Below are positions 11,480 to 53,841 of a stretch of DNA of 64,000 nucleotides, piece by piece. Where the stretch lies: positions 31,941-95,940 of the forward strand of contig JAGBTN010000018.1 in the NCBI GenBank assembly GCA_017631315.1, written 5' to 3'. The DNA comes from Bacteroidaceae bacterium (GTDB lineage: Bacteria; Bacteroidota; Bacteroidia; Bacteroidales; Bacteroidaceae). The position numbers were made by a program, and so were the translations under genes. Within the stretch, counting starts at the first letter, position 1. Each line of letters starts with the position of its first letter. A model generated the notes under the pieces. The model was given only the letters and a program-made list of their open reading frames with translations, did not search any database and was not told where the DNA came from.

Positions 11480-11589
11480 AATAAGCTGACGGTTTTTGCC
11501 AAACGACGCACGTGAAGTCGGCAAACTATACACGTGAAGTTTGTCAACTATACACGTTAAGGCAATAAACTTCTCTCGTGAAGTTTGTT
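11480..11589. repeat. Intergenic array A of 22-bp palindromic repeats (class 1)
   Basis: Five tandem units with starts at 11480, 11502, 11524, 11546 and 11568, an exact 22-bp period. The last four begin AAC and carry a core like AACTTCTC..GTGAAGTTTG. Units diverge in sequence but most keep a central CACGTG-type dyad. The 443-bp gap between the convergent lptD and engB holds only this array and the two terminator-like hairpins; no ORF there looks coding. Confidence 0.85.
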
Positions 11590-11679
11590 TCTTTCCTGTT
11601 TTTCGTTCTATTTTGTGCCGTAAGACGTCGGAAATCGAACTGACAAAAAGAAAGCAAAAAGGGGTTTTTAGTGACAAAA

Positions 11680-12273
11680 CTAACCTTGCATGATTGCCTC
11701 GATGCAGCCGAGAACTTCCTCCCTGCCTTGCCTTGTTTCGCTGCTTGTAATGAAGTAGGGCGGCAGTTCTTCCCATTGCTTGGAAAGCGTGTTGAGGTAG
11801 AGCTTGATGTTTGCGGCAAGTTTTCCTCGCGACATTTTGTCGGCTTTCGTGAAAACAATGCCAAACGGGATGCCGTTCTCGCCCAGCCACTCGATGAACT
11901 CCAAATCGATGCGCTGTGGCTCGTGGCGCGAATCGATAAGCAGAAAGAGGTTCATCATTTGCGGGCGTCGCAGGATGTAGCTGCTAATCATCTGCTGAAA
12001 CTGTTCCCGTTGCCCCATGCCTCTGCGTGCATAACCATAGCCGGGAAGGTCCACAAGATACCAATTCCCGTTGATAAGAAAATGGTTGATGAGAACCGTC
12101 TTGCCGGGTGTGGCAGAGGTTTTTGCCAGATGGGTTTTACCCGTCAGCATATTGATGAGGCTTGATTTGCCTACGTTGCTTCGCCCTATGAAGGCAAATT
12201 CGGGCAGCTCTCCCTGCGGACACTGGTCCACTCGGGCACTGCTAATGGTGTATTCGGCGGATTTGATAATCAT
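11680..12273 (-). CDS. engB: Ribosome biogenesis GTPase EngB/YsxC (YihA)
   Basis: 197-residue GTPase required for late 50S subunit assembly. Motifs: G1 [12 protein letters not shown] (~29-40), G2 Thr region in SATPGKT (~54), G3 DLPGYGYA (~75-82), G4 TKADK (~142), G5-like TSS near residue 175. Length and order match EngB exactly. The DUF3078 gene ends 58 nt upstream on the same strand, so the two may be cotranscribed. The 3' end faces lptD across repeat array A. Confidence 0.95.
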
Positions 12274-12330
12274 GAGGCTTCTTTTCTGCTTGCTCCCATC
12301 CTCTGGGAAACAGAGTTTTTAGTTTGAGAG

Positions 12331-13674
12331 TTAGAAGTTGTATTTCAAGCCAAGGCTGAGGAACTCCCTGAACATGAAGTATGTGTCGAAACGGCTCTTT
12401 TGGCGGTAACCTTCGTTGCTGTTGTCGAAACGTGGATAGAGATACAACTGAGTGTTGATGAGTTTTGTAACGGAAAAGTCGATGGTGTTCTCCCATTCCA
12501 GAATGTTATACTCGAAGTTGCTCATCCAATATATGCGGCTCGACCATGAAATCTGCTTGCATATCTGCCATCGTGAATTCAGGGTGATGTTAGGACCGAA
12601 GGTGAACTTGCTGTGGGTGTCTTCCTCAAGACCATAATTCTTCACAATATCGTCGTCGTGGACATAGAGAACCTTCATGGCAAGAGGAGCCACGTTGAGT
12701 TGGCCGGTGAACTGTTTCTTCTTGCCGGCAGCGAAGTCCCACTTCATACCCGGGGCAACGGTTACTTCAAGGGGAGAAAGAATCTTGGAGTTGACCTTGT
12801 CGCTATTTCTTTGAACATTGGGAGCAATCTGGGTCTGCATGATGACCTGCAAAGAGTAGGAAAGAGTCTTCCATGCTTTATAGCCGGCATTGGTGGTGTA
12901 GCGTAGCAGGTTTTGCGAAGGGTGGAAGGAACGTTTTTCGTCGTTTTTCGTCGTTTGGAAACCCAACTGAATGTTCACTTCATTGTCCCAACTTATCTTG
13001 CGCTGGTCGTTGTAGTTCGCCCTCAATGTCATGTTAAGGTTGCCGGTGACGTTCGTCTCGCCACCTCTGTACCAGTTGTCGGAGAAGAAGTTTTGAACGA
13101 ACTGTAACGATACGTCGCCCGAGAATTTCCAGAAGTTTGGTCTGCGAGTAATAACCTCCACAGGCTCGTTAAATTCCGGAGTCAGTTTGGAGTCGACCAC
13201 CTTGTCGGCCAGCTTGTCGGAACTTTGCAGAATCTCATTCACGTCGTCTCGAATGCTCGCCTGCCCCATGATATCGCTTTCTGTCTGCGTAACCAACCAG
13301 GGAGCATCGGTGTATAGCGTGGACAGGGCTCTTCGAGAGGCATAGAGTCGCTGAAGTTGAGGGTCGGGACAAGACGTGTCTGTTTCGCTCATCATTTGCT
13401 GAAGCGGAGAATTGTAGAGCGCAGGAGGGGAAAGAAGCTGGTAGTAGTAGGCATTGAGCATGGACGGCGTTGTTGTAGCGTTGAGCACGTCACGTTCTTT
13501 TGCCAATGTGTCGATAATGGCAAGATACTTGTCAACTAAAGAAATCGAGTCGGTAACCGCATTGGTCACCGAGTCGGTTCTTTCTGTTACTACTTCTTCG
13601 TTTTCTGTTTGTGATGCACAATAAGCGCCCAAAGCCATTGTGCAGACACAGAAAAGTATTATTAAACGCTTCAT
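12331..13674 (-). CDS. DUF3078 outer-membrane protein
   Basis: 447-residue exported protein. Signal peptide MKRLIILFCVCTMALGAYC, then a helical acidic region (~25-165), then an aromatic-rich beta-barrel segment beginning FWKFSGDVSLQFVQNFFSDNWY (~178-199), the hallmark of DUF3078 proteins in Bacteroidetes, and ending GLKYNF with a terminal aromatic typical of BAM substrates. Function unknown; presumed outer-membrane barrel. The promoter TACTTTTGC is at 13690-13698. Confidence 0.82.
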   Translation of the reverse strand: MKRLIILFCVCTMALGAYCASQTENEEVVTERTDSVTNAVTDSISLVDKYLAIIDTLAKERDVLNATTTPSMLNAYYYQLLSPPALYNSPLQQMMSETDTSCPDPQLQRLYASRRALSTLYTDAPWLVTQTESDIMGQASIRDDVNEILQSSDKLADKVVDSKLTPEFNEPVEVITRRPNFWKFSGDVSLQFVQNFFSDNWYRGGETNVTGNLNMTLRANYNDQRKISWDNEVNIQLGFQTTKNDEKRSFHPSQNLLRYTTNAGYKAWKTLSYSLQVIMQTQIAPNVQRNSDKVNSKILSPLEVTVAPGMKWDFAAGKKKQFTGQLNVAPLAMKVLYVHDDDIVKNYGLEEDTHSKFTFGPNITLNSRWQICKQISWSSRIYWMSNFEYNILEWENTIDFSVTKLINTQLYLYPRFDNSNEGYRQKSRFDTYFMFREFLSLGLKYNF

Positions 13675-13689
13675 TTATCCCAATTTTGT

Positions 13690-13698
13690 GCAAAAGTA
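13690..13698 (-). promoter_or_regulatory. -7 promoter element for DUF3078 gene
   Basis: Minus strand TACTTTTGC, 16 nt before the ATG at 13674. Confidence 0.6.
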
Positions 13699-13742
13699 CA
13701 AAATAAATGCGAACTAAGAACCATGAACTATTAACTTTTTTA

Positions 13743-13751
13743 TAACTTTGC
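13743..13751 (+). promoter_or_regulatory. -7 promoter element for yidC
   Basis: TAACTTTGC, matching TAnnTTTG, about 75 nt upstream of the yidC ATG. Confidence 0.6.
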
Positions 13752-13825
13752 ACCCCCGTTATATATAAACGGCACGATTGTTGCCGTCAAAGTAGAAACA
13801 AATCAGTAGAAAATACATAGAACAC

Positions 13826-15685: not shown

Positions 15686-15702
15686 AGTATTGGAGAAGTA
15701 AT

Positions 15703-17898: not shown

Positions 17899-17946
17899 GA
17901 ATGAAATATCAAATAAAATAGTAAACAATAAATCGTTAAATTGTAA

Positions 17947-19554: not shown

Positions 19555-19605
19555 AATACTCCATACTATATGTCGCTGATAATTAGGCGACGTATTGTGC
19601 ATAAA

Positions 19606-19693
19606 AAGTTCACACGTTAAAATGCCAAACTTAACGTGTGAACTTTGCCATTTTAACGTGTATAGTTTGGCAACTTCACCGTAGTAATTAAAT
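19606..19693. repeat. Intergenic array B of 22-bp palindromic repeats (class 1)
   Basis: Four units starting at 19606, 19628, 19650 and 19672. The first two form a perfect 15-bp inverted repeat, AAGTTCACACGTTAA (19606-19620) with TTAACGTGTGAACTT (19631-19645). The array ends about 10 nt before the GH92 start. Confidence 0.85.
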
Positions 19694-19702
19694 AACGAAC
19701 TT

Positions 19703-21994: not shown

Positions 21995-22005
21995 AGTAGT
22001 CTGCA

Positions 22006-22093
22006 AACTTCTCCTGTGAAGTTCGTCAACTTCTGCAGTGAAGTTTGCCAACATCACTGCAGAAATTCGTCAACATCACTGCAGGGTATTTTA
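22006..22093. repeat. Array C of 22-bp palindromic repeats (class 1), overlapping a gene end
   Basis: Four units starting at 22006, 22028, 22050 and 22072. The first two carry AACTTC..GTGAAGTT cores; the last two share AACATCACTGCAG. The acyltransferase stop codon (22054-22056) lies inside unit 3, so units 3-4 encode the last residues of that protein. Confidence 0.85.
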
Positions 22094-23079: not shown

Positions 23080-23091
23080 GAATAGGATTGC

Positions 23092-23571: not shown

Positions 23572-23686
23572 TTTATTTACGATTTTATGATTAACGATTT
23601 ACTATTTATTGCTTTTGCAGATTTCGTCATTGCTTCCTGTAAATAACTCAAAAGTAAATAGTAAATGGCTAAATGGTAAATGTATT

Positions 23687-24862
23687 TTATCTTCTTCTCA
23701 TCTTACCGAAGAGGTCGCGCATGCCGTCCAGGTCGAAACCGAGTGAGAAACGCATGGTCTGGTCCAGAGGATTGGTCTGTGCCGTTGAGAAGACATAGGC
23801 AGCATCGACCGAGAAAACACTCATGTGGAAGCCTGCACCGACAGTGAAGTACTTGCGGTTACCCTTGTTTTCTGCTTCGTGGTGATAACCGGCACGTAGC
23901 ATAAAACGGTCGTTGTAGGTATATTCGCAACCAAGACTCCATTGAATCTCCTGCATCTCTTCCTTGAAACCACCTGGTGCATCACCGAAGCTCTTGAAGA
24001 TACCGGCAATGGAAGATACATCATAGTAGTCCTTCTCCACACGAGCTGTATATTCTTCTTCTGCCTCGCCCTCATCTTGTTTGGGGTAGGTAGGCACGAG
24101 AAGTTTGTTTATATCTCCGGCAATGCTGAATTTGTTATACTCGTTGAATGGGATTGTCAAGTTCATACCGATACGTAGGTTTGTTGGTATGAACTCGGAG
24201 TAATCACTACCACCGTATGAAATCTTCGAGCCGATGTTGCTAAGATTGATACCCCAACCAAAACTGCACTCGCGGTTGCCAGCCATGAAGTAGCCCAAAC
24301 GGTAGAGGGCAATGTCGGCAGAAAATGCCTTGCCGGCACTGCTTTCGGCAGTGTAGTCGTATTTGATGTCGGAAAGTATGAAGCGCAGATTGACAGCCAT
24401 TGAGAAATTCTCACTCAACATACGGCTATAACCGGCATCGATCGCCATCTCGTAAGGCTTGATAGTCATGTCTTCCATGTCAGAAAGATAAACTTCACCA
24501 AGGCTGAAGTAGCGCAAAGAGGCGTGTACGGCACTGTAGTCACCAATACGGTAGAAGCCGGTCAGGTTTGCCAGATTGATGTCGCTTACCAGTTTGCGAA
24601 GCCATGGCGTATAGCTGATGCCAACACCTGCACGGGCAATGTTGAAAGGATATTTTGCAGGGTTCCAATACTGTGAATAGATGTCGGCTTCTGTTGCTGC
24701 ACCAATATCGCCCATGGAGCCGCCTCTTGCATCAGGTGCAATGGCTAATGAGGTGACACTTGTGTTCACAGGGTTGAACATATTTTGCTTGTCCTGTGCC
24801 AGGACTGTTCCTGCGCTGCATACAACAAGTAGCAGGATAAGAATGATTCTGTGTGCTTTCAT
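23687..24862 (-). CDS. porV: Type IX secretion outer-membrane protein PorV
   Basis: 391-residue FadL-like outer-membrane barrel. PorV acts as a shuttle that receives T9SS substrates from the translocon and presents them to the sortase PorU. It has a signal peptide (MKAHRIILILLLVVCSAGTVLA), then the family's start VTSLAIAPDARGGSMGDIGAATEADIYSQYWNPAKYPF; the remainder is aromatic-rich beta strands. Start chosen at ATG 24862; the frame is open to a TTG at 24883 but that would prefix the signal peptide with polar residues. porU lies 26 nt upstream, the same order as in other Bacteroidetes. Confidence 0.93.
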   Translation of the reverse strand: MKAHRIILILLLVVCSAGTVLAQDKQNMFNPVNTSVTSLAIAPDARGGSMGDIGAATEADIYSQYWNPAKYPFNIARAGVGISYTPWLRKLVSDINLANLTGFYRIGDYSAVHASLRYFSLGEVYLSDMEDMTIKPYEMAIDAGYSRMLSENFSMAVNLRFILSDIKYDYTAESSAGKAFSADIALYRLGYFMAGNRECSFGWGINLSNIGSKISYGGSDYSEFIPTNLRIGMNLTIPFNEYNKFSIAGDINKLLVPTYPKQDEGEAEEEYTARVEKDYYDVSSIAGIFKSFGDAPGGFKEEMQEIQWSLGCEYTYNDRFMLRAGYHHEAENKGNRKYFTVGAGFHMSVFSVDAAYVFSTAQTNPLDQTMRFSLGFDLDGMRDLFGKMRRR

Positions 24863-24888
24863 AACTCTATTATAACTACGCAAGAGCC

Positions 24889-27800
24889 TTATTTATTGTT
24901 TAATACCACAATTTTTTGTGCCTTTGTGGTCCATTTGCTATCTCCACACCTTACACTGCATCGGTAAAGGTAGATTCCTGTACCAACCCTTGAGCCGGCT
25001 CCGTTTGTTAAATTCCATGCAACGCTGTAAACACCGCTTGGTTCGCTTGCTTTTTCTTCGTGCATCCATATGCGACGGCCGGAGAAATCGAAGACCTCTA
25101 CAATGAAGTCGCATTCACTGCCGGGAAGGTCGTAACTAATCATGAAGTTTGTTCCGGTTGTTGCTGGATTTTGGCTTGCCACCATGTGCAGGATGTCTGT
25201 CGCCATGGTGTTGTCAACAACGAAGTCGAGTTGTATCTGGCTTGTGTTGTTCAGTACGTCCCATGCACGGAATGTAAGACTATGTGCGCCATTCGTGAGT
25301 GTAGGAATGTTATAGGCAACTGTTCCTTTTGTGAAGTCGCCAAATTCGTTTGAGTAGTATTCGTTGATATTATATGTGAGGTCGCTTCTGCCATCGATGC
25401 AAAGTGAGAGGTCGTGGCCAATGCCGTTGCCGCTGGAGCTGATGCCGCTAGCATCAGAGAGTTGTGCCACGAAGAGTGGTGTGGCATTCACTGTGCCACC
25501 ATTCTGGAACTCTTCGTTGTTGAGGTAAGCATATATCTGTGGGCCGTCTTTGTCGAAGTCAGTGTTGTCCACAATGCCACCAAGGGGAATGTCTTCGTTG
25601 TGTCCGTTTGCTTCGATGTTTCCTGCATCGTTGATGGCATAGAAAACAAAGCGTCCTTCTTGATTGCTGAAGTTGATGTCAATGGGGATGATAAACTCCT
25701 TGCTGAACAAACCTGCTCGAACACTGTCTTGCGATTCGTGTAACAGAATGTTCTGCTCTGTAAAGACAAATGGTTCAACGTCTTCTCCTGCATTGTTGAG
25801 GCAGACGATATTCTCCTTGCTGTCAAACATACGTGTCTGGATTATGCCATTGAAGTCCGTCATTGTCGTGCCGTCTTCGCGTTCTATATGTCCGGACATC
25901 CTTACGCGTTCGCCTGCCTTTAGGGGGATGGAATTGCCATTCACGTCGTGGTCGTTTATTTTGTCCACAACAATCTTTTGTGTGGGATTGCCTATGGTGA
26001 GAGCCGGGTCGCCAAGCAGAGCGTATTGTAACTTGTTCTCAGTGTATCCCGATTCTTTATTATCGCTGATGATGCTGTTCTTTGCCAATCGTATTGCATC
26101 GCCTATGCGGTTGCGTTCGTTGCTCTTGCCTGTTCTGCGCGAGAAGAGGTATTGCATGAAGTATCGATTCATGTGATAGTTCTGGCTGGCAAAAACGGTA
26201 CGGGCAGTGCCATAGAATGCCAAGGCACCTCCGTTGGGATTGAGAACTGCACTCTCGCCGATATTCTCGGTGTTCGAATCGAAAGGCATTACGTCGCAAG
26301 CGCATGTTACCCACAGAGGTAACTGGGTGCATTTGTTTTCTTCAAAATCACCGCGTAGCAATACATTCTCGTGGCTGAAAGCGTGTGTGCCGGCATGTCC
26401 GGTATAGTTCATGACGAGTGCACCTTCGCTCATTTGCTTCTTTATTTGTTTTGTAGCTTCGGGGAAGGTGTTGCTGTTTGGAGAACTAACTCGGGTGTAT
26501 GCATCCCACATGATTTTGTGTACTTCGATGTCAGGATAGAGTGAGATGGTATTCTCGGCCACATTGTTGGCATACCTCATGTGGCTGTTTTTGTCTCCGT
26601 CATCGCCAAGGAAGTAAACAAGGTTTTTCCATGAGCCAGCATTTTTGTTGCTCATATATGTGATGGTCTTGTCCACCATGATTTTAGCATCTGCAGGGCG
26701 AGTGACGGGGAATCGGCCAATGCCTATGTCGCTTTTCTCACGTTTGATTTCATAACCTTCGTTGTCATCGAGTAAGCCGAAGTAGTCTTCCATGACGAAA
26801 CTTTTTGTGTCGCTGAAGCTGTTTTCGCTTTCGTAGCAGAGAAGATAGTCATCGGGATTTTTGTTTATCCATGCACCAGAAAGCATTCGGTTGTCCCATG
26901 CGCAGTCTCCCATGAGCAGAAGGTAGCGTGGAGCAACGTCAGGGTTCTTGGCCTTGTCGTAAAGCATCTTCATGAAGAGACGGTAGGCTGTAGGGTCTGG
27001 TGTGCCACTGGAGAATTCGTTGTATACTTGGTCGGCACGGACGATGCCTACTCGCAAACCGTCGTATTGCAGGTGTGCGTCTGCCAGGCGTTGTGCTTCG
27101 GAGAGTAATTTGCCGCTGGTGGGGATGATGATAACCATGTCGAGGCTGTCGATGGCGTGCAGGTTTTGGTTCTCGACATTGCCTTCGATGGTTGGTTCCG
27201 GGAAAGTCGCAGAAGGATTGAATGCTACAAAGTGCTGTGTGCCATCGTCAACGCAAATGCGGTAATGACCTCCATGCTGTGTGCCTTCCACGAGGGCATC
27301 TTTTTGACCAACTTTTCCTGTGCGGATAACCTTTACGTTTGAACCTTCAATGTTGAATGCTGTGACAGCCTTTTCGGTAGAACGAAAGTCAATGTAGTTG
27401 GTTGTCGTTATGCTGAGTTTGCGGTCATAGCTATATGCGAGATAGTCTAATCGTGCTCTCTTCCCAACTTCGGAGCGGATGTGCACGTTGAGATTAGCTG
27501 GTGTCCCTCCTTCAAACAGAGTGTCAAGTTCATAGACTCGTTTCGCTTCAGTGGCTTTGGCATATTCGTCACTATTCGCTGCAACGGTAAATGCAAATGG
27601 AACAGTATCATTCAGACTGATATTGACTCTGTTTGATGTGGAGCCGGATGCGGTAAAGACCACAGTCAGTTGCCCGTTTCCAACGGGGTCAATGGCAGAG
27701 AGCTTGTAACTGTGTGAATTGTTTTTTGCATAGTCATCACCGTCGAAAAGATGACGTCCGATGGAGTACCATGCTTCCTTGTCTTTCTCGTATAGGGTGT

Positions 27801-28653
27801 GCGCCCTCGTCGTGTAAATGTTATGCTGCGGTTCGTATTTAGACGATGCGATGGTTTCTATCTGCGAGGGTGTGTCTTCCTGCGTGAGGAAGTAGCAGGC
27901 TTGTCGGGCATAAGTGTTGCTGATGCGTGTATCTTCTTGCCAATGGATGAGGCCATTGCCCCAGAAAAGCCAGCTGTCTGTCTGTGCATTATAATAGAGT
28001 GGCACTTCTACAAGGTCGTCGTGGTGTGTGCCAGGAAAGACATGTTCGGGCAGCAGATAACCACCATATCCGTAAAGATGGACGTTGTCGGGATTGGTGA
28101 AACCCATCTTTCGGAGTGTGGCACGAGAGAATTGGTAAAGCCCATCTTCTGTGATGCTGACCTTTACCCAGGTACCTGTTGCCAGTTTGGAGCTTGTGGC
28201 ATAGCGACCTGTCTCTGCAATTCTTGTGATGGGAGCGTTTTGCTTGCCGTTCCAAGTGGCGTTGATGACTATTTGTGCGCTGATGAGCTTCTCGTATCTG
28301 CCTGCGTTTTTCCGTATAGGGATGAAGGAAATGTCGAGCAAACCTTTCCCGCGTTCCACACCAACGAAGGTCTCTATATCAATGGCTTCACTCAAAAGGC
28401 TGTCGAAACGCTCGGCCACTTGTGCTTCCTTACTGCTGAGTGCGGCATATTCCGGGTAGAGAAGTGCAACTGAATAGGAATGAAGACGATAATCGGTGTT
28501 CAATGGTACTACCTCCGTATAGACGGGCAGTACGGAGTCTATCTTCATTTCCTCCCAATCCAGGCTAGTGAAGCTGAGTCCTTTTTCCTGCTGGGCATTG
28601 ATGCATTGCATCAGCACCATCAGCATCAGGCATATTGTGAAAAGTCGTTTCAT
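24889..28653 (-). CDS. porU: Type IX secretion sortase PorU (gingipain-like, C25)
   Basis: 1254-residue surface cysteine peptidase that removes the C-terminal sorting domain of T9SS cargo and attaches cargo to anionic LPS. Signal peptide MKRLFTICLMLMVLMQCINA. A gingipain-like catalytic domain lies at ~480-870, with the catalytic His in NYTGHAGTHAFSHE and Cys in WVTCACDVMPFDS. Ig-like and FlgD-like domains follow, ending in SGRRIWMHEEKASEPSGVYS...GIYLYR. Next to porV. The rest of the T9SS (porK-N, porT, sov, porQ/Z) is not in this window. Confidence 0.94.
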   Translation of the reverse strand: MKRLFTICLMLMVLMQCINAQQEKGLSFTSLDWEEMKIDSVLPVYTEVVPLNTDYRLHSYSVALLYPEYAALSSKEAQVAERFDSLLSEAIDIETFVGVERGKGLLDISFIPIRKNAGRYEKLISAQIVINATWNGKQNAPITRIAETGRYATSSKLATGTWVKVSITEDGLYQFSRATLRKMGFTNPDNVHLYGYGGYLLPEHVFPGTHHDDLVEVPLYYNAQTDSWLFWGNGLIHWQEDTRISNTYARQACYFLTQEDTPSQIETIASSKYEPQHNIYTTRAHTLYEKDKEAWYSIGRHLFDGDDYAKNNSHSYKLSAIDPVGNGQLTVVFTASGSTSNRVNISLNDTVPFAFTVAANSDEYAKATEAKRVYELDTLFEGGTPANLNVHIRSEVGKRARLDYLAYSYDRKLSITTTNYIDFRSTEKAVTAFNIEGSNVKVIRTGKVGQKDALVEGTQHGGHYRICVDDGTQHFVAFNPSATFPEPTIEGNVENQNLHAIDSLDMVIIIPTSGKLLSEAQRLADAHLQYDGLRVGIVRADQVYNEFSSGTPDPTAYRLFMKMLYDKAKNPDVAPRYLLLMGDCAWDNRMLSGAWINKNPDDYLLCYESENSFSDTKSFVMEDYFGLLDDNEGYEIKREKSDIGIGRFPVTRPADAKIMVDKTITYMSNKNAGSWKNLVYFLGDDGDKNSHMRYANNVAENTISLYPDIEVHKIMWDAYTRVSSPNSNTFPEATKQIKKQMSEGALVMNYTGHAGTHAFSHENVLLRGDFEENKCTQLPLWVTCACDVMPFDSNTENIGESAVLNPNGGALAFYGTARTVFASQNYHMNRYFMQYLFSRRTGKSNERNRIGDAIRLAKNSIISDNKESGYTENKLQYALLGDPALTIGNPTQKIVVDKINDHDVNGNSIPLKAGERVRMSGHIEREDGTTMTDFNGIIQTRMFDSKENIVCLNNAGEDVEPFVFTEQNILLHESQDSVRAGLFSKEFIIPIDINFSNQEGRFVFYAINDAGNIEANGHNEDIPLGGIVDNTDFDKDGPQIYAYLNNEEFQNGGTVNATPLFVAQLSDASGISSSGNGIGHDLSLCIDGRSDLTYNINEYYSNEFGDFTKGTVAYNIPTLTNGAHSLTFRAWDVLNNTSQIQLDFVVDNTMATDILHMVASQNPATTGTNFMISYDLPGSECDFIVEVFDFSGRRIWMHEEKASEPSGVYSVAWNLTNGAGSRVGTGIYLYRCSVRCGDSKWTTKAQKIVVLNNK

Positions 28654-29415: not shown

Positions 29416-29547
29416 ACCTTCTCGCGTGACGTTTTCGCGCACCACTCGTCCACTTTGCCAAATGGACACGTCCATTTGGCAAACTTCACACGTGAAGTTG
29501 CCCAACTTCTCTAGAGTAAATTGCAAACTTCTTTGCAGTAGTTTTAT
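29416..29547. repeat. Intergenic array D of 22-bp palindromic repeats (class 1)
   Basis: Six units starting at 29416, 29438, 29460, 29482, 29504 and 29526. Unit 3 and its flanks form a 14-bp inverted repeat, TTTGCCAAATGGAC / GTCCATTTGGCAAA; unit 4 holds AACTTCACACGTGAAGTT. Together with the tsf terminator it fills the 350-bp gap between FAH and tsf; no coding ORF is evident. Confidence 0.87.
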
Positions 29548-32572: not shown

Positions 32573-32718
32573 TCTTTGTTTTGCTTTTGTTTTTTGTTTC
32601 TACCTTGTTTATTTCTCTTTTCTATGGGCGATTCACGAACCGTTCGTTCAGGCCAAAGAGACGAACTATTCACACGCTCCATAAGGGATTTTAGGAACCC
32701 CTTGATAATAATCGGCTT
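32573..32718 (-). promoter_or_regulatory. Structured 5' leader of rplM-rpsI (candidate L13 autoregulatory leader)
   Basis: The ~140-nt untranslated leader contains three copies of a 6-mer that can pair in two exclusive ways: on the minus strand GTTCGT (32661-32666), ACGAAC (32642-32647) and GTTCGT (32635-32640). A second small helix is possible in GGGGTTCC..AATCCC. I recall an L13 leader motif described for Bacteroidia, which fits the position; sequence identity to it is not verified. Confidence 0.5.
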
Positions 32719-35421: not shown

Positions 35422-35511
35422 GGTTAACCATTATTGCCCGAAAGGTTAACCATTATTGGCATAATCCTTAACCATTATCCTTAAATAGGTTAACCATTAT
35501 TCCTGCACATG
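35422..35511. repeat. Intergenic array E of 22-bp repeats (class 2, GGTTAACC)
   Basis: Four units with TTAACC at 35424, 35446, 35468 and 35490 (exact 22-bp period). Each unit is GG/CC-TTAACCATTAT plus about eight variable bases. It starts 9 bp after the flippase stop and ends ~110 bp before the GH92 start. Confidence 0.87.
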
Positions 35512-38326: not shown

Positions 38327-41275
38327 TTATTTAATGAAAACTTTCTTTCCGTTTACGATATTGATTCCTTTCTGTGCCTTACTTACTCTTTGTCCAGCAA
38401 GGTTGTAAATAGTGTTCTCTTCTGTGGGAGAAGTTGAGGTGATGGCGATACCGGTGGGGTCGTCATTCTCATCGAATTCTATCTTCAATGCTTTGATGCC
38501 GGCAACACTTGCCGTCGGTAACTGCAGGTATGCTTTGCCTGCATCCAATGTGCCGGTTTGGGAGAGCGTATAGAAGCCTACACCATAACTGCCATTCGAA
38601 AGAATGTAGTTTGTGTAATTACCATCTGTGGGAGAAATGATTGTTGGCTCTGTTACGCCTTTCAGCAGGTTGGAATAGAACATAGTGGTCTCTGTCTGAG
38701 GAATCTCATGTCTGCCTGGTGTTCCTGCGATGTAGAGTCCCTCGCCTGCGGGCACTTCCGTCACACGAGTGAGCACCAGTGTGCCAGTCTCTTGGTTAAA
38801 TCCACTGACAATGTATGCTTTGATATCCATAACTTCCGAGAAGTCCAAAGCGTTTGTAGAACAATATGTGGCAAAACCAGTCTCGCCGATTTCGATGACG
38901 CTAGGCATTTCCACAATGTTACCAAATTGATTCCATGGAGATGCTGCTTCGTATACTGCCTTGCAACCATATGGTACATGGAGAGTTGCAGAAGAAATAG
39001 AAGAACCATTAAAAGCGTAAGAGTTTGTTCTAGGAACATTTTCAGCATAACAAAAAACGTCTGCTATACTGTTGGCGTACGCAAAAGCATTATTTTCAAT
39101 GTTAGTCACGCTGTTGGGGATGGCAATGGATATCAAACTACAGCAATCAGAGAAAGCCCACTTTCCTATGCTAGTCACGCCGTTGGGGATGGTGATGGAT
39201 GTCAGGCCGCTGCAACCAAAGAATGCTTGATCTGCTATTTCAGTTAGACCGTTTTCTAATGTTACAAATTGTAGATTGTAACAGTCATAAAATGCTCCCG
39301 TACCCATTTTAGTTATACTTGATGGTAAACTAATTGATATCACATTCTCATAATCAGAGAATGCCCAATTTCCTAAGGCGGATATACCATTACAAACTGT
39401 TATTTTTTTTATAGATGCCTTGTGTTCACCTCCAGGGCTGCCCTTAAAAGTTCCAGTGCCTTCAACTATAAGTTCTCCTTCTAATGTTAGTTTCCATATT
39501 AGAATAGATGTATCGTTTGGATGGTTATATGTTTCAGAACCTGAAGCAACGATATCGTTTCTCTGTATATTTTCAAAATCTTTCCATAAGTCTGCGTTTT
39601 TGTATGTGGAAACAGAAGAAACCGGAACATATACTGGGATAGATTTATTAATATTTTCGAAAGAATAATTTCCACATGTGGGTGGAGTTTCTGCATTGCA
39701 AGATATGGATGTTATATTGCGACATCCATATAAAGCATACTCTCCTATAGATATCATACTATTTGGAATAACAACAGATGTAATGCCTTGGCGACCATTT
39801 AATGCATACGGACAAATATATTTCGTGCCTTCTGTTATGTTAATCGACGTGTCCCAAGGGGCATCTCCCTTATATGTATATAGTGCACTGCCTATATACA
39901 AGATGCCATCAGATTGAGCATTATACCACGCAGTGTTTTCAAATGACGATGCACCAATGTAAGTAACACTATTTGGTATAGTAAAGGAATATAAACTTAT
40001 ACAATCTAGGAAGGCTCCGTTACCAATGTATGATAGTTTTTCTGGTAAAGAAATAGTTGAAATTACTGCACAATTTTCAAAAGCATAATTCCCAATATGT
40101 GTTATATCCTTTGATAAATCGATGGTATCCACAAAGCTACAATTATAGAAAGCCAAATCTCCAATTGAAGTGACTCCTTCACTAATACTAATTTTCACAA
40201 TTGAGGTTCTATAATCAAACCAAGGAGTATTATAGTACTTATAATCACTCATATCTCCTTTTCCTTTGATCTTAAGTTCACCCATTGGAGTAAGTTCCCA
40301 GGTAAGATTTGTTCCACAAGTACCAGAAACATTCTTATTTCCTGTTATATTTTTAAAGTCGCTCCAAGGACTTGTTGATTTATATGTATTTATAGAAGAT
40401 GTGGGAACTGAAAGTTTGCAAGAAGAAGTGATAGCAGAGCTAAATGTATTAGTGCCACATGTTGGAGGATTGGAATTTAGGCAAGTAATAGAGTTTAATT
40501 GGCTACAATTGCTAAAGGCATTGTCTTTTAATAAAGAAACCTGGCTACCAATACTAAGTGAGGTCAAAGTTCTTAATGCATAAAATGGAGAATATCCATA
40601 GTCACTAGTTGTATTATATTCTAAGTTACGACCTATATATAAATTCTTAATTGGAGAATCTCGAAATAAGCCTTTACTATATCCTCCTGCTGCACCAAGA
40701 GTTAGGGTTTCAGCGCCATCCTCAACAATAACTTTTTCAATAGATGTACATCTATCAAACGCACCTTTTTTAATTTCTTTCACTCTATTTCTAATAGTGA
40801 CTTTCTTGATATTTTCACACCCTTGAAAAGCATAACTTTCTAAGGTTGTACTTGGTATTATAACACTTTGTAAATTTGTACAATTTGCAAAAGCAGAACT
40901 GCCGATATAGCTAACATTGTTAGGAATTGTAATGTTTATAAGGCTTTTACAACCATAAAACGCATAATAACCGATGCTAGTCACGCTTTCCGCTATAATG
41001 ACATTTGAAAGATTTGAATAACCATCAAAAGCACTGCTTGGAATTGATGTCACCCCCTCTTGAATATCAACAGTGCGAATGTAATTTTGAAATTGTCGCC
41101 ATGAACTTTGTTCTATAGCCCCTTCTCCGCTTATAACTAATTTCCCCGTTTCTGTGTCGAGAGTCCAAGTCAAGTTATTACCACTGGCTCCGCATTCGCC
41201 AGATAAAACCTCGGCTTTTGTCACTAAACAAATAGAGAATAAGCCGACTAATGCTAATAGTAGATGTTTTCTCAT
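38327..41275 (-). CDS. BspA-like leucine-rich-repeat surface protein
   Basis: 982-residue secreted protein. Signal peptide MRKHLLLALVGLFSICLVTKA. Three header modules of the type CG..LTW.L...G.L.I.G.G (~25, ~318 and ~575) each lead into LRR_5/BspA-type repeats (units such as VTSIGDLAFYNCSFVDTIDL). A beta-rich domain (~790-935) follows, then a C-terminal ~40-residue segment ending IYNLAGQRVSKAQKG..IVNGKKVFIK. That ending is common on Prevotella extracellular proteins and may be a sorting domain for the T9SS, whose PorU/PorV are encoded nearby. BspA-like proteins bind host matrix or other bacteria. The LRR-coding DNA (39.2-41.3 kb) is visibly more A/T-rich than its neighbours. Confidence 0.9.
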   Translation of the reverse strand: MRKHLLLALVGLFSICLVTKAEVLSGECGASGNNLTWTLDTETGKLVISGEGAIEQSSWRQFQNYIRTVDIQEGVTSIPSSAFDGYSNLSNVIIAESVTSIGYYAFYGCKSLINITIPNNVSYIGSSAFANCTNLQSVIIPSTTLESYAFQGCENIKKVTIRNRVKEIKKGAFDRCTSIEKVIVEDGAETLTLGAAGGYSKGLFRDSPIKNLYIGRNLEYNTTSDYGYSPFYALRTLTSLSIGSQVSLLKDNAFSNCSQLNSITCLNSNPPTCGTNTFSSAITSSCKLSVPTSSINTYKSTSPWSDFKNITGNKNVSGTCGTNLTWELTPMGELKIKGKGDMSDYKYYNTPWFDYRTSIVKISISEGVTSIGDLAFYNCSFVDTIDLSKDITHIGNYAFENCAVISTISLPEKLSYIGNGAFLDCISLYSFTIPNSVTYIGASSFENTAWYNAQSDGILYIGSALYTYKGDAPWDTSINITEGTKYICPYALNGRQGITSVVIPNSMISIGEYALYGCRNITSISCNAETPPTCGNYSFENINKSIPVYVPVSSVSTYKNADLWKDFENIQRNDIVASGSETYNHPNDTSILIWKLTLEGELIVEGTGTFKGSPGGEHKASIKKITVCNGISALGNWAFSDYENVISISLPSSITKMGTGAFYDCYNLQFVTLENGLTEIADQAFFGCSGLTSITIPNGVTSIGKWAFSDCCSLISIAIPNSVTNIENNAFAYANSIADVFCYAENVPRTNSYAFNGSSISSATLHVPYGCKAVYEAASPWNQFGNIVEMPSVIEIGETGFATYCSTNALDFSEVMDIKAYIVSGFNQETGTLVLTRVTEVPAGEGLYIAGTPGRHEIPQTETTMFYSNLLKGVTEPTIISPTDGNYTNYILSNGSYGVGFYTLSQTGTLDAGKAYLQLPTASVAGIKALKIEFDENDDPTGIAITSTSPTEENTIYNLAGQRVSKAQKGINIVNGKKVFIK

Positions 41276-41344
41276 AATATGTTTCAGTTATACTGTTTTG
41301 TGTTAGCCTGACTCCTGAGCTAACGTTGCAAAACTAAAGTCTGA

Positions 41345-41685: not shown

Positions 41686-41867
41686 TGTAAATTATTTATA
41701 AAAGTGAGCCATTTTCCACAGAAATTATCATAAATGTAGATTTTATTGCTTGTTGGCTGTCTTGATTCGCATAGAACAAGACAAGGCAAGTAATTAGGTT
41801 TGTTAAAACTTTGACTTATACACGAGCAAAATACTCCTCACAAAAGACAATGTGAGAAGTTACCAAT

Positions 41868-42087
41868 AAGTACGTGAACTTCCGATCATAAGTTCACGTA
41901 CTTATTGGTAGAAGATCGTGAAATTATTGGTGGAAGATCGTGTACTTCTGTGCCCCCCCCCTCGCGAGAGGATTGACGGATACTTGTGAGACCTCTCAAA
42001 AGTTCTCGTGAGAAGTCTGGCATTTTCTCTGCAGAAGTCGAGCGATTTCTGCAGAGAAGTTTTGCCGAAGCTCGTGAGCTTAAAACA
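41868..42087. repeat. Array F: ten 22-bp palindromic repeats (class 1), largest array
   Basis: Ten back-to-back 22-bp units: 41868, 41890, 41912, 41934, 41956, 41978, 42000, 42022, 42044, 42066. Units 1-2 form a perfect 21-bp stem (41861-41881 with 41890-41910) around an 8-nt loop. Units 8-9 form a 12-bp inverted repeat, TTCTCTGCAGAA / TTCTGCAGAGAA. Units 3-4 are near-identical (AAGATCGTG). Lies in the 1,050-bp stretch 41276-42325, which otherwise holds the RNA candidate, the decayed small-ORF tail and the TolC terminator. Confidence 0.9.
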
Positions 42088-42094
42088 TAGCGCA

Positions 42095-42195
42095 AACAAA
42101 AAGTGAGGGACACCTTCCTGAAAGGCATTTCTCACGCTACTAGATTTGTTTATCATTCGTTGTCCCCTGCAAGAGTGGGATAAGCGCATTCCTAT
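42095..42195 (-). pseudogene. Decayed copy of the LRR-associated small ORF tail plus terminator
   Basis: Aligns with 38091-38190: both begin (plus strand) with ACAAAAAGTGAGGGA, contain CATT[CA/CG]TTGTCCC, and end near AGCGCATT. In the minus-strand frame matching WDNEW it reads AGDNE then a stop, with another stop about 12 codons upstream, so the ORF is broken. It forms a direct repeat flanking the LRR gene. Confidence 0.55.
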
Positions 42196-42243
42196 GCTGT
42201 AGGCAGTTTAGAGAAAAGGGAAATTTGTAGATGTATAAAAAAA

Positions 42244-42265
42244 GCCAATGGCATATGCCACTGAC
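42244..42265 (-). terminator. Terminator of the RND efflux operon
   Basis: GTCAGTGGCA / TGCCATTGGC 10-bp stem with a 2-nt loop on the minus strand followed by TTTTTTT; about 60 nt after the TolC-family stop. Confidence 0.8.
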
Positions 42266-42325
42266 TTTTTTTTATTGAGTATGAGTTAAACAGCGTCAAA
42301 AGGTACGCCGCAATGTGTGTTGGCA

Positions 42326-43702: not shown

Positions 43703-43721
43703 AGCTTAATACTTAATGTAA

Positions 43722-47027: not shown

Positions 47028-47082
47028 CAGAATTCAAAATTTAGAAATTCAAAATTCAAAGTTCTTTTCGCTTCTTGTGTGT

Positions 47083-48192: not shown

Positions 48193-48294
48193 ACAGTTAT
48201 ATAAATTGTTTGGTTATTTTCTTGTTCAACTGGCAGAAATCTGGTAAACTGTCAGGCGGAAATGTTATTCCTCTCTGTGCTTCGTAAATCGGCT

Positions 48295-48303
48295 GCAAAG
48301 GTA
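48295..48303 (-). promoter_or_regulatory. -7 promoter element for the RND efflux operon
   Basis: Minus strand TACCTTTGC, matching TAnnTTTG, ~103 nt before the adaptor ATG. No regulator gene is adjacent. The 374-bp gap 48193-48566 contains this promoter and array G only. Confidence 0.65.
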
Positions 48304-48470
48304 CGAAAAAATATCGAAACGGCGAGAGCCCTCATGGTCTAAATGGCACATTGATTTGTTCATTTTTCCTTTTGGACTTTGTTTTTAAGAATTTTTAAGT
48401 GCGGGCTTGAACAAATGCTTTTTGTTTGCGTAGGCTGTAGATTGCCTTCGGCGGAGAGGTCGTGGGAAAT

Positions 48471-48560
48471 GCTTAACCATTATTCGCGAAAAGGTTAAGC
48501 ATTATGGCTGGAATGGTTAACCATTATTGCTGAAAGGGTTAACCTAATTTTCGAGCCATC
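48471..48560. repeat. Intergenic array G of 22-bp repeats (class 2, GGTTAACC)
   Basis: Four units with TTAACC/TTAAGC at 48473, 48495, 48517 and 48539. Consensus GGTTAACCATTATT plus eight variable bases. It begins 6 bp beyond the stop codon of the TPR gene, in its 3' region. Confidence 0.87.
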
Positions 48561-48566
48561 TGTTGG

Positions 48567-50678: not shown

Positions 50679-50738
50679 TCGTCTGTAAAATGAAGAATCG
50701 AGAAAAAGGAAAAGTAATCCCCCCGTTGTCGAAATGGC

Positions 50739-51638
50739 TTATTTCTTAGCTTTCCTTTTGTTAAGCCAGATTTCAGCATCCTTCATGTCTTCTGGGTGAA
50801 TAGCAGAAGGACTTTTGACGGGTTTAAGTTCAAGAGTGTCGGCAAAGGCAGGCGGCAATTGATAATCTTGCTTAAGAATGTTGCGCACTATAACGTTCTC
50901 AGCATCTCTCTCCATGTAGATTATAGCCGAATCCAACATGCTCAGGAAAGTTTCTTCTTGTGCCTGTGTGGCAGAAACATTAGCCCAAACATAGAGCCAA
51001 GGTCGTTTCCCCTCCGAAGAGAAAAGGCGTTTGTTCCCCAATCTTGTCATCCAAGTTGCAAAAGGTTCGCTCATCATTGCAGCATCGACAAGTCCCTGTC
51101 GAAGCATCTCGGCACGCAAACAAACATCATTAACTTGTGGACGATATATATCATCATGGCTCGTGTTGGCTTCGTCAAGCAGGCGGTCACACCAATAATC
51201 TGTTGCAGAAAGGCGGCTTATTGCTATCATTTGTTGCTTCATCTGGTTGATTTTCTTCACCCGTTTCGTTTTGAGTGAGATAAGTGATAGCGGTTCGTCG
51301 CAAGAAGCAATCGGTTTGACAGGTGTTTTTGCTTGTGCTAATCTTGTGCAGCGGATAAGGTCGGTAAAGGCAATGTCTGTGTGTCCGCGTTGGATAGCCG
51401 TGTCAATATCCATTTGGGCCTGGAAGCGAAGCAACTGTATCTTCATGCCAAGTTTGTTCGCAAGCCCGCTTTGTTCGGCATAATATACAGGCAAACAATT
51501 CATGGTGGGCATGACAGCAATGCGCAATACCGTAGTATCGATGCTTATACTGTCAGCCTTAAATTGCATGGCCTCCTGTCGCTCGGAGCAGGAGGCCAGC
51601 ATGATAGTGGCTATTATTGCCAGTAGTGTTTGTTTCAA
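50739..51638 (-). CDS. NMT1/SsuA-like substrate-binding lipoprotein (orphan)
   Basis: 299-residue lipoprotein (lipobox IMLASC, Cys17) with a type-2 periplasmic-binding fold: VLRIAVMPTMNCLPVYYAEQSGL (~36-58), GHTDIAFTDL (~91-100) and a second lobe with LRQGLVDAAMMSEPFATWM (~180). The fold resembles NMT1/SsuA proteins for thiamine precursors or sulfonates, but the ligand cannot be read. No ABC permease or ATPase is nearby, so it works with a distant transporter or acts as a sensor. Starts 23 nt after the pgk stop. Confidence 0.7.
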   Translation of the reverse strand: MKQTLLAIIATIMLASCSERQEAMQFKADSISIDTTVLRIAVMPTMNCLPVYYAEQSGLANKLGMKIQLLRFQAQMDIDTAIQRGHTDIAFTDLIRCTRLAQAKTPVKPIASCDEPLSLISLKTKRVKKINQMKQQMIAISRLSATDYWCDRLLDEANTSHDDIYRPQVNDVCLRAEMLRQGLVDAAMMSEPFATWMTRLGNKRLFSSEGKRPWLYVWANVSATQAQEETFLSMLDSAIIYMERDAENVIVRNILKQDYQLPPAFADTLELKPVKSPSAIHPEDMKDAEIWLNKRKAKK

Positions 51639-51661
51639 TGTTCAAAAAAGTGGTCGATGGC

Positions 51662-52930
51662 TTAACCTTTGATGGCTGCAACACCGGGAAGTACTTTGCC
51701 TTCGATTGCTTCAAGCAGTGCGCCACCACCAGTGCTGATGTAGCTAACCTTGTCGGTCAGGCCGAACTTGGTGCAGCATGCTACGCTGTCACCGCCACCG
51801 ATGAGTGAGAATGCGCCTTCTGCTGTTGCCTGTGCAATAGCTTCGCCAACGGCTTTGCTGCCTGCTGTGAAGTCGTCGCACTCGAAGCATCCGGCAGGAC
51901 CATTCCAGAGGATTGTCTTTGCGCCCTTGATGGCGTTGGCGAACTTCACACGGCTTTCTGGACCTGCGTCCAATCCGTCCCAACCTTCTTCGATGGCGTT
52001 TGAGGGGAATACCTTCACTTGCTCGCCTGGCTTTACGCAGAAGTTGCCGAAGTCATAGCCGGTGCAGCATACGCTGTCTACGCCCAAAACGAGTTCTACG
52101 CCATTTTCTTTGGCTTTCTTTTCTACTTCGAGTGCAACGTCCAGCTTGTCGAGCTCTACGATAGATGCGCCGATTTCGCCGCCATGAGCTTTGGAGAATG
52201 TGTATGTCATGCCACCACAGAGGATGAGTTTGTCTACCTTGCTCAGCAGGTTTTCGATGATGCCAATCTTGGTGCTTACTTTAGAGCCGCCCATGATTGC
52301 TACGAAGGGGCGCTTGATGTTAGAGAGTACGTTGTCGACAGCGGTTACTTCTTTCTCCATAAGCAGGCCGAGCATCTTGTTGTCGGCGTCGAAGTAGTCT
52401 GCGATGACTGCTGTAGAGGCGTGCTTGCGGTGTGCTGTACCGAAGGCATCCATTACGTAGCAGTCGGCATAGGCTGCCAGTGTTTTTGCGAATTCTTTTT
52501 GACTTTCCTTCATTGCCTTCTTTGCTTCGTCGTAGGCGGGATCTTCTTTGTCGATGCCTACGGGCTTGCCTTCCTCTTCGGGATAGTAGCGGAGGTTTTC
52601 GAGAAGGAGTGCTTCGCCCATTTTGAGTGCTTGGGCTGCATCTTGAGCTTTAGCGCAGTCGGGTGCAAAGGCTACGGGGCAGCCGAGTGCTTCTTCTACG
52701 GCAGCGCGAATCTGGCCGAGTGAGAATTTTGGGTTTACCTTGCCTTTGGGTTTGCCCATGTGGCTCATGATGATTGCTGCGCCACCGTCGGCGATAATCT
52801 TCTTCAGTGTGGGAAGTGCGCCACGGATGCGGGTGTCGTCGGTAATTTCACCATTCTCGTTCAGGGGTACGTTGAAGTCAACGCGCACGATTGCCTTTTT
52901 GCCGGCAAAGTTATACTCATTGAAAGTCAT
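51662..52930 (-). CDS. pgk: Phosphoglycerate kinase
   Basis: 422-residue glycolytic enzyme transferring phosphate from 1,3-bisphosphoglycerate to ADP. Seen: substrate motif [25 protein letters not shown] (~11-35), HMGKPKG (~58-64), the hinge and nucleotide domain with [14 protein letters not shown] (~205-218) and the C-terminal [25 protein letters not shown]. Slightly longer than the ~390-residue E. coli enzyme, as usual in Bacteroidetes. Promoter at 52990-52997. Confidence 0.97.
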
Positions 52931-52989
52931 AAATGTAATGTGTTATATTGTTGTTTGTTGTTTTGTTATCTTCTTAGGAGATTCCGCCA

Positions 52990-52997
52990 CAAAGGTA
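52990..52997 (-). promoter_or_regulatory. -7 promoter element for pgk
   Basis: Minus strand TACCTTTG, 60 nt before the pgk ATG, between nth and pgk. Confidence 0.65.
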
Positions 52998-53031
52998 CGA
53001 CATTTCTATGAAATGTGCAAGTTTTACGGGC

Positions 53032-53715
53032 TTACTTTTTTGATTCGCTTGTGTGGGGGATGGTGGTTTGTTTGTGCAATGGTGTGTTATGGGCTTTGCA
53101 GAGGTGGCGAAGTCCGCATTTGTCGCACTTGGGTCGAAGGGCGGTGCAGGTGTATCGGCCGTGGAGAATGAGCCAATGGTGTGCATTGGGGATTTCTTCT
53201 TCGGTGAAATGTTTGGTGAGTGTTTGTTCTACGGATAATGGTGTGGTAGAGGATTTTGGTACGAGTCCCAGTCTGTGGCTTACGCGAAAGACATGGGTAT
53301 CGACTGCCATCCTTGCTTCTCCCCAGACAACACTCAGTATGACGTTGGCTGTTTTGCGTCCGACGCCTGGCAGTGCTGTCAGTTGCTTCAGGTCTTGCGG
53401 TACTTCTCCGCCGTGTTTTTCCCACAGCATTCGTGCCATTTCTACAAGGTGTTTGGCTTTGTTGTTGGGGTAGGAGACGGTACGGATGTATTCGTAGATG
53501 ACTTCTGGTGTGGCCAGAGCCATTGCTTCGGCGTTGGGATAGTCTTCAAAGAGTTTGGGAGTGACCTGGTTGATGCGCTTGTCGGTACACTGTGCGCTGA
53601 GGATGACGGCTACGAGCAGCTGGAATGGATTGCCGTAGTGCAGTTCTGTTTTTGCATCCGGCATTGCCTGGCGGAAGTATGTTGCTACTTCGCGATATAA
53701 CTGTTTGCGAGTCAT
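53032..53715 (-). CDS. nth: Endonuclease III (DNA glycosylase/AP lyase)
   Basis: 227-residue base-excision repair enzyme removing oxidised pyrimidines. Helix-hairpin-helix with catalytic Lys in LPGVGRKTANVI (~114-125), catalytic Asp in VDTHVFRV (~138), and the four-Cys iron-sulfur motif C-x6-C-x2-C-x5-C in CTALRPKCDKCGLRHLC (~191-207). A Lys-rich tail follows. Array H lies 35 bp upstream of its start. Confidence 0.96.
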   Translation of the reverse strand: MTRKQLYREVATYFRQAMPDAKTELHYGNPFQLLVAVILSAQCTDKRINQVTPKLFEDYPNAEAMALATPEVIYEYIRTVSYPNNKAKHLVEMARMLWEKHGGEVPQDLKQLTALPGVGRKTANVILSVVWGEARMAVDTHVFRVSHRLGLVPKSSTTPLSVEQTLTKHFTEEEIPNAHHWLILHGRYTCTALRPKCDKCGLRHLCKAHNTPLHKQTTIPHTSESKK

Positions 53716-53749
53716 TGTTTTGAGAGGGGAGTGTGGTGCTTCAAAAAAA

Positions 53750-53841
53750 GGTTAACCTTTCTGTTGAATTAGGTTAACCATTCTTGCCATAAGGGTTAAC
53801 CTATTTGCCCAATTAGGTTAACCTTTTCGGGCAAATAGGTA
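53750..53841. repeat. Intergenic array H of 22-bp repeats (class 2, GGTTAACC)
   Basis: Four units with TTAACC at 53752, 53774, 53796 and 53818. Variable segments pair with each other: CCTATTTGCCC and GGGCAAATAGG are perfect 11-bp arms around unit 4. It starts 35 bp upstream of nth and ends ~20 bp beyond the GH43 stop. Confidence 0.87.

What the first reader, a model, noticed from the sequence alone, without database searches (positions are those of the whole stretch)
11480..53841. Dispersed family of intergenic arrays with an exact 22-bp period built of palindromes
Eight intergenic sites (11480-11589, 19606-19693, 22006-22093, 29416-29547, 35422-35511, 41868-42087, 48471-48560, 53750-53841) each hold 4-10 head-to-tail units, about 41 units in 64 kb. 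Unit starts fall at exact 22-bp steps in every array I counted. Two sequence classes share the same period: one with AACTTCNC..GTGAAGTTTGCC-type units, one with GGTTAACCATTATT plus eight variable bases. Twenty-two bp is about two helical turns, so symmetric sites would lie on one DNA face, as expected for a dimeric DNA-binding protein or a series of short RNA hairpins. No transposase, nuclease or integrase is nearby. I have a vague memory of 22-bp direct repeats reported in Porphyromonas, which I could not check.
Basis: seen in the sequence. Interest (0 to 1): 0.9.

Follow-up and report, generated by a model that had tools for sequence, protein, structure and literature searches.

The report
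Genome-wide operator arrays of HU-like proteins
A gut bacterium and its relatives scatter short tandem runs of 22-base palindromes between their genes, and similar runs sit in front of genes for unusual HU-like DNA-binding proteins, which points to those proteins as the likely, still untested, binders of a multi-code system for marking or folding the chromosome.

Summary
In detail: eight arrays, exact 22-bp register. A scan using only dyad symmetry and spacing picks out 22 bp in 444 kb of this genome. Genome-wide, class B (GGTTAACC) gives 350 site pairs against 2 in the control, class A 154/143 against 0/2. Related species hold arrays of the same period with different palindromes. Units tolerate uncompensated changes in one half and the class B core evolves about four times slower than other intergenic DNA: a protein that reads DNA, rather than RNA hairpins.

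The new link is to HU-HIG genes (PF18291), many of which carry arrays upstream. In 12 genomes the upstream arrays tend to match that genome's dispersed arrays (permutation p 5e-5; 4 of 12 do not). In one HU-HIG clade all 11 sampled genes have a class C-type array, in a fixed register to a promoter box in 9. A motif read from an HU-HIG promoter in another family found dispersed arrays there and in none of nine other genomes. Against: predictions failed in three genomes, enrichment shrinks with matched controls, the class B link is weak, and binding is untested.

The parts
11480..11589 (.). Class A array, 5 units of 22 bp (first unit weak); ACACGT and CTCGTGA centres; convergent gap between an LptD gene and a GTPase gene
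19606..19693 (.). Class A array, 4 units, mostly ACGT centres; between an MFS transporter gene and a GH92 gene
22006..22093 (.). Class A array, 4 units, CTGCAG-type centres; after the GH92 gene, overlapping the 3' end of an acyltransferase ORF by 40 bases
29416..29547 (.). Class A array, 6 units, including a GGACACGTCC palindrome; 3' of tsf (EF-Ts)
35422..35511 (.). Class B array, 4 units with GGTTAACC or CCTTAACC cores; between a polysaccharide biosynthesis gene and a GH92 gene
41868..42087 (.). Class A array, 10 units in one register, mixed centres; between a BspA-like LRR gene and an outer membrane efflux gene
48471..48560 (.). Class B array, 4 units; between an HlyD-type gene and a TPR protein gene
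53750..53841 (.). Class B array, 4 units, preceded by an A-tract; between an endonuclease III-like gene and a GH43 gene

Best explanation
The arrays are operator arrays of HU-HIG proteins: HU/IHF-type DNA-binding proteins (PF18291), multiplied in these Bacteroidales, each paralog reading its own palindrome. Shown by computation: the arrays, their period, their genome-wide number, conserved class B cores, and arrays of matching class in front of many HU-HIG genes. Inferred: a dimer occupies each 22-bp unit, neighbouring dimers stack on one face of the DNA, the promoter array autoregulates the HU-HIG gene, and the tens to hundreds of intergenic arrays are fixed landing sites that shape or partition the nucleoid. 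The last step is the least certain; ordinary gene regulation by some arrays is not excluded.
For: Period 22 from symmetry alone in own genome, in 80 named loci (23 positions vs 0-8 at other periods) and in 38 stretches of other genus members (20 places vs 0-5, 13 at the harmonic 33). Class B core substitution 21/640 (3.3%) vs 13.5% in other intergenic DNA and 14.4% at third codon positions, 22 orthologous arrays. One-sided changes: class B pair +-3 is GC 82, GG 23, CC 21, CG 0 of 126. Dispersed arrays match the HU-HIG-upstream arrays of the same genome: 12 genomes, permutation p 5e-5; own genome ranks first for 7 of 12 and second for G000. All 9 class C-linked HU-HIGs of the first set form one clade (100/99); the two held-out genes with class C arrays fall in it (11 rows, 100/99). 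There, units start at about -153, -131, -109 and TAnnTTTG lies at -33/-34 in 8 of 9, and both held-out members agree. Three sister genes (L255, L324, L325) with other palindromes keep the same register to a TAnnTTTG box, 109 bp modulo 22. Held-out HU-HIGs from 11 species: 9 of 20 with an upstream array (score 19 or more) vs 11 of 114 control genes with an upstream gap of 150 bp or more, p 4e-4. G059, another family: a promoter-derived motif finds 14 pairs at 5 loci, 4 of them away from the 15 of 17 HU-HIG matches listed; 0 in 9 other genomes. Class B protein: 95% identical in G023 (332 pairs), 76% in G019 (34 pairs), 78% or less in the others, which have 0-7 pairs.
Against: In G018, G025 and G031 none of the 21 HU-HIG matches examined (of 25) carries the class dispersed in that genome; G015 also fails (rank 8 of 12). 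With controls restricted to upstream gaps of 250 bp or more, the first set is not significant at score 19 (11/51 vs 8/72, p 0.09), only at 17 (20/51 vs 16/72, p 0.03). Most sampled HU-HIG genes stay below score 19 (53 of 75 in the first set). Class B arrays are common (36 arrays, 131 gaps of 100 bp or more), so one beside an HU-HIG gene may be chance; the class B-type proteins of G026 (78%) and G019 (76%) have a different array or none upstream. Fixed geometry within one clade can come from common descent. HU proteins are mostly known as weakly sequence-specific (recalled). No binding data.
Confidence: 0.68

Rival explanations
1. Another DNA-binding protein reads the arrays; HU-HIG genes are merely among its targets.
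For: Many HU-HIG genes have no clear array and some array classes have no HU-HIG found carrying them. A canonical HU gene lies beside the class B-linked HU-HIG gene in G000 and G023.
Against: Array class follows the HU-HIG clade and differs between paralogs of one genome (TCATGA and TACATGTA types over two HU-HIGs in G034 and in G026). A single other regulator would not explain several classes per genome.
Confidence: 0.13
2. RNA-level hairpin arrays: terminators or 3' mRNA stabilisers.
For: Where a gene end faces a class B array, the array starts a median 39 bp after the stop codon (38 gene ends); arrays begin with A-tracts and end with T-tracts; 36 of 38 of those class B gene ends lack a terminator called before the array.
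Against: No compensatory covariation about either class B centre beyond near-invariant pairs; in class A only at +-3 (z 5.0) and +-4 (z 2.9), which a mixture of site types can explain. Class B gap types are tandem/convergent/divergent 22/8/6 vs 81/25/25 for gaps of 100 bp or more, so no bias to 3' ends. Few array-free gene ends have a terminator by the same finder (10 of 94), so its absence says little. The tsf array lies beyond a terminator-like hairpin in L071.
Confidence: 0.06
3. A REP/BIME- or MITE-like mobile minisatellite without a dedicated binding partner.
For: Intergenic, hundreds of copies, class content differs sharply between species; whole-unit length changes (+22, +22, -66 bp); copies in G059 share flanking sequence.
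Against: No Y1 transposase match in G000 or G023. Of 24 class B arrays anchored on both flanks, 22 keep their length within 23 bp in G023; one has shrunk by 66 bp to a single unit and one is absent. Core constraint and HU-HIG promoter placement are unexplained.
Confidence: 0.1
4. Neutral concerted evolution: unequal exchange between arrays keeps cores alike without function.
For: Spacer positions change faster than other intergenic DNA (81/318, 25%, at +-6 and +-7), as if segments are swapped.
Against: Does not explain a 22-bp palindromic period kept across unrelated sequences, or promoter geometry.
Confidence: 0.03

Closest known systems
HU-HIG family (PF18291), HU/IHF superfamily
   Same: The eight proteins scanned score over the family's cut-off. 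I recall a 2017 study that tied the family's expansion in Bacteroidetes to recognising mobile elements; the paper was not held.
   Different: The listings seen show no report of tandem palindromic operator arrays for them (lists of 63 and 75 were capped). Arrays kept in place on the own chromosome suggest own-chromosome sites rather than invader recognition.
P. gingivalis HU PG0121 and the 77-bp inverted repeat of the capsule locus (PMC3969353, abstract and outline seen)
   Same: An HU-type protein of a Bacteroidales species studied for binding at an inverted repeat.
   Different: A canonical HU judged non-discriminatory by its authors' section heading; one inverted repeat, not dispersed 22-bp arrays.
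REP/BIME elements with RAYT transposases
   Same: Hundreds of intergenic palindromic repeats, species-specific (recalled definition).
   Different: No Y1 transposase match in this genome; exact 22-bp tandem period; several unrelated sequence classes share the architecture.
BrickBuilt and PgRS elements of Porphyromonas gingivalis
   Same: Intergenic short-period tandem repeats in a Bacteroidales genome (PMC4596501, passages seen).
   Different: 23-nt and 41-nt units, about 10-20 copies, inside MITE-like elements; different consensus.
MatP/matS, SlmA, Noc: chromosome-organising proteins with dispersed palindromic sites (recalled)
   Same: A sequence-specific protein with many dispersed palindromic sites.
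   Different: HU fold, tandem arrays rather than single sites, several paralogs each with a private site class.
Mycobacteriophage L5 repressor and stoperators (recalled)
   Same: A regulator with an operator at its own promoter plus many dispersed copies.
   Different: Cellular chromosome, palindromic tandem arrays, HU-type protein.

Membership tests
REP/BIME with RAYT | Y1 (REP-associated) transposase in the genome | tested here: not met
   PF01797: 0 matches in G000 and G023; G000 is 86.6% complete, G023 72%
REP/BIME with RAYT | Intergenic palindromes in high copy | tested here: met
   36 of 36 class B arrays centre outside predicted genes in 444 kb; counts
BrickBuilt MITE | 23-nt repeat AGAYCATARTATCCTCTCRTRTG | tested here: not met
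   Consensus read; units here differ in length and sequence
BrickBuilt MITE | Leader, tail and terminal inverted repeats | not tested
   No alignment to these parts was made
HU-HIG operator arrays (proposed) | Array in front of HU-HIG genes more often than of other genes | tested here: inconclusive
   20 of 71 HU-HIGs (ten species plus held-out) vs 11 of 342 genes; with control gaps of 150 bp or more p 0.036 (first set) and 4e-4 (held-out), with 250 bp p 0.09 and 0.0016
HU-HIG operator arrays (proposed) | Upstream class matches dispersed class of the same genome | tested here: met
   Permutation p 5e-5 over 12 genomes, though 4 of 12 genomes do not match and three stayed unmatched on fuller HU-HIG lists
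HU-HIG operator arrays (proposed) | Protein binds the array | not testable with these tools
   Needs EMSA, footprinting or ChIP
RNA hairpin array | Compensatory base changes within units | tested here: not met
   with class A exceptions at +-3 and, weaker, +-4
Described Rfam families | Match at gathering score | tested here: not met
   Only the L13 leader at 32630-32701 in the window

The most novel reading that the evidence does not exclude
Each cell carries several HU-HIG paralogs, each addressing its own genome-wide set of 22-bp-period arrays, so that the chromosome bears several parallel sequence codes for folding or compartments; codes and proteins change together between species, like a bacterial analogue of fast-evolving centromere repeats and their binders.
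Probability: 0.3. Interest if true: 0.95.

Novelty: new variant of a known kind. Interest (0 to 1): 0.85.

Why it matters
HU proteins are regarded as the general, barely sequence-specific packers of bacterial DNA (recalled). A family of HU relatives with private, predictable operator arrays would give a testable role to a large Bacteroidales protein family, explain a whole class of unexplained intergenic repeats, and provide many natural protein-site pairs for learning how an HU fold gains specificity.

Tried and rejected
RNA hairpin reading: rejected on covariation and gap types. Terminator reading: a simple terminator finder called few terminators anywhere, so it decided little. REP/RAYT: no Y1 transposase. 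BrickBuilt/PgRS: different units. Separation of classes A and B along the chromosome: not significant (18 switches vs 23.1 shuffled, p 0.08). Sequence search for solved structures of two HU-HIG proteins: no credible match. Search for HU-HIG in the window and the 80 named loci: one hit, L116, without an array. Prediction that the remaining HU-HIGs of G018, G025 and G031 would carry the dispersed class: failed; 21 of 25 matches looked at, the other four below the cut-off. Other families of the order: no period-22 place at score 23 in 20 stretches, 272,622 bp. Of four G059 HU-HIG promoters, three score 18-20 at period 22 against 17-19 for the best other period, so there the array calls are weak by score.

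Limits: gene calls come from my own simple codon-usage caller. HU-HIG start codons were chosen by rule; mis-set several, corrected. HU-HIG lists were partial in the first set (for example 8 of 11 in G026, 13 of 19 in G016, 3 of 10 in G008), and the 70 genes include six of two other families. HU-HIG was tried because of a recalled paper and the adjacency was then seen in call listings, so the first set is not blind; two of the 20 held-out genes were picked for looking like the class C type. Control genes for the held-out set come from ten other species. In one search, three dispersed arrays were drawn at random where a genome had more, and seven genomes had two or fewer. Array classes were labelled by eye. 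Shuffles keep base but not dinucleotide composition. Lists include likely chance hits near the threshold.
Full report
What is there. The eight window arrays are real and in exact 22-bp register. A scan that knows no sequence, only four dyads at spacing p, gives 44 positions at p=22 with score 24 or more of 36 in 444,317 bp of this genome, 9 at the harmonic 33, and 0-1 at every other period from 12 to 44. Pattern searches of the whole 2,684,086-bp genome give 350 class B pairs (up to 2 mismatches, reversed control 2) and 154 forward/143 reverse class A matches (up to 3 mismatches, control 0/2). A third class, C, with TTG-N6-CATG-N6-CAA units, gives 13 pairs here.

Anatomy. In 444 kb, class B gives 36 arrays; 26 have 4 units, 4 have 3, 3 have 5 and 3 have 2; they start after an A-tract and end in a T-tract. 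All 36 centre outside predicted genes, in tandem, convergent and divergent gaps in about the proportions of all gaps of 100 bp or more (22/8/6 vs 81/25/25). Class A gave 28 clusters: 20 intergenic, none divergent, and 8 inside predicted genes, 6 of these single 28-bp matches that are probably chance.

Protein site or RNA hairpin. In class B units, deviations fall in one half and are not compensated: at pair +-3, GC 82, GG 23, CC 21, CG 0 of 126; four pairs are less complementary than shuffled (z -2.2 to -3.9). High z at two near-invariant pairs (7.2 and 8.2) rests on one or two units; nothing else is positive about either centre beyond z 1.5. Class A shows positive covariation at +-3 (z 5.0) and weaker at +-4 (z 2.9), and negative at +-1 and +-5 (77 units). 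Class A mixes site types that cluster by array (p 0.008), which may explain the +-3 signal.

Constraint. In 22 class B arrays aligned with the relative G023, the GGTTAACC core changed at 21/640 positions (3.3%), against 13.5% in other intergenic DNA (5,062 positions) and 14.4% at third codon positions; spacer positions +-6 and +-7 changed at 81/318 (25%). Of 54 arrays, 26 were spanned by an alignment and 27 anchored on both flanks; of the 27, length changes were +22, +22, +23, +10, -66, -129 and otherwise 3 bp or less. The -129 case lacks the array, the -66 case keeps one unit.

Other species. Class content varies greatly among 36 genus members: class B 332 in G023 and 34 in G019, 7 or fewer elsewhere; class C up to 243; class A up to 139/137 in G023. 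The blind scan finds 22-bp arrays with other palindromes in other species: 20 places in 38 stretches (718,653 bp) vs 0-5 at other periods, 13 at 33; also in named loci of Equimonas, Mediterranea and a Bacteroides MAG, within 80 loci where period 22 gives 23 positions vs 0-8. Twenty stretches from 20 other families gave none.

The partner. HU-HIG (PF18291) was tested because I recalled its expansion in Bacteroidetes; it finds 8 matches in this genome, canonical HU included. Arrays lie upstream of many HU-HIG genes. At score 19 or more, in 51 HU-HIGs of ten species 11 have one, vs 11 of 342 control genes (p 1.5e-5). That control is too easy, since many genes have no large upstream gap: with gaps of at least 150 or 250 bp it is 11/51 vs 11/114 (p 0.036) and vs 8/72 (p 0.09). 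A held-out set of 20 HU-HIGs from 11 species gave 9/20 (p 4e-4 and 0.0016 against the same controls). Across the 75 upstream regions of the first set, 22 reach this score at period 22, 13 at 33, 6 at 44 and 0-4 at other periods.

Specificity. Dispersed arrays resemble the HU-HIG-upstream arrays of their own genome (12 genomes, p 5e-5): G016 GAACCATGGTTC, G024 GCACC..GGTGC, G012 TTGCTTCATCGCGATGAAGCAA and others; G015, G018, G025 and G031 do not, and fuller HU-HIG lists for the last three did not rescue them. All nine class C-linked HU-HIGs of the first set form one clade (100/99), with units at about -153, -131 and -109 and a TAnnTTTG element at -33/-34 in eight. Two held-out genes, L317 and L318, join that clade (11 rows, 100/99) with the same geometry. 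Taking array centre to box, nine of the 11 and three sister genes with other palindromes (L255, L324, L325) share the register of 109 bp modulo 22; L272 is off by 2 bp and L217 has no such box. That TAnnTTTG is the Bacteroidetes -7 box is recalled. Shared descent can explain the geometry; yet the array sequence differs between paralogs and, in the matching genomes, agrees with dispersed sites. In G059, of another family, a motif read from one HU-HIG promoter finds 14 pairs at five loci, four of them near contig ends and away from the 15 of 17 HU-HIG matches listed, and none in nine other genomes.

Class B link. The class B candidate (L215) has a class B array about 226 bp upstream, between it and a canonical HU gene. 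Because class B arrays are common, adjacency alone is weak. Its close ortholog (95%) is in the only other genome of 61 with hundreds of class B pairs; relatives at 78% (G026) and 76% (G019) have none and 34.

Conclusion. The likeliest reading is a set of HU-HIG paralogs, many with their own operator array in the promoter and, for some, tens to hundreds of further intergenic arrays. Binding, autoregulation and the chromosomal role are inferred. In the papers library the listings, several of them capped, showed no report of this.

Noticed in passing
window 32630-32701 (-): L13-Bacteroidia ribosomal protein leader, the only Rfam match in the window at gathering score.
   Followed up: no
window 23687-28653 (-): Peptidase C25 gene (1254 aa) beside a PorV gene, resembling the porU-porV pair of type IX secretion (porU name recalled).
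   Followed up: no
window 38327-41275 (-): BspA-type leucine-rich repeat protein of 982 aa next to the ten-unit array.
   Followed up: no
L076 8991-9410: Downstream of tsf in this relative lies a longer-period tandem repeat (about 41-44 bp by eye) instead of a 22-bp array.
   Followed up: no
L122 5659-6080: Tandem units of about 23 bp by eye downstream of tsf in a Bacteroides MAG, which has 22-bp arrays elsewhere in the locus.
   Followed up: no
class B arrays, G000/G023 alignments: Spacer bases between cores change about twice as fast as other intergenic DNA.
   Followed up: partly
class B array flanks in G000: Units just outside the array look like GC-rich palindromes (CC..GG) in the same 22-bp phase, like caps.
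   Followed up: partly
L310, L314: Dispersed arrays of G059 sit near contig ends and share flanking sequence, as if copied as longer elements.
   Followed up: partly
G016: This relative has 19 HU-HIG matches; several of the 13 fetched have different upstream palindromes such as GATAATTATC and AAATACCTATTT.
   Followed up: partly
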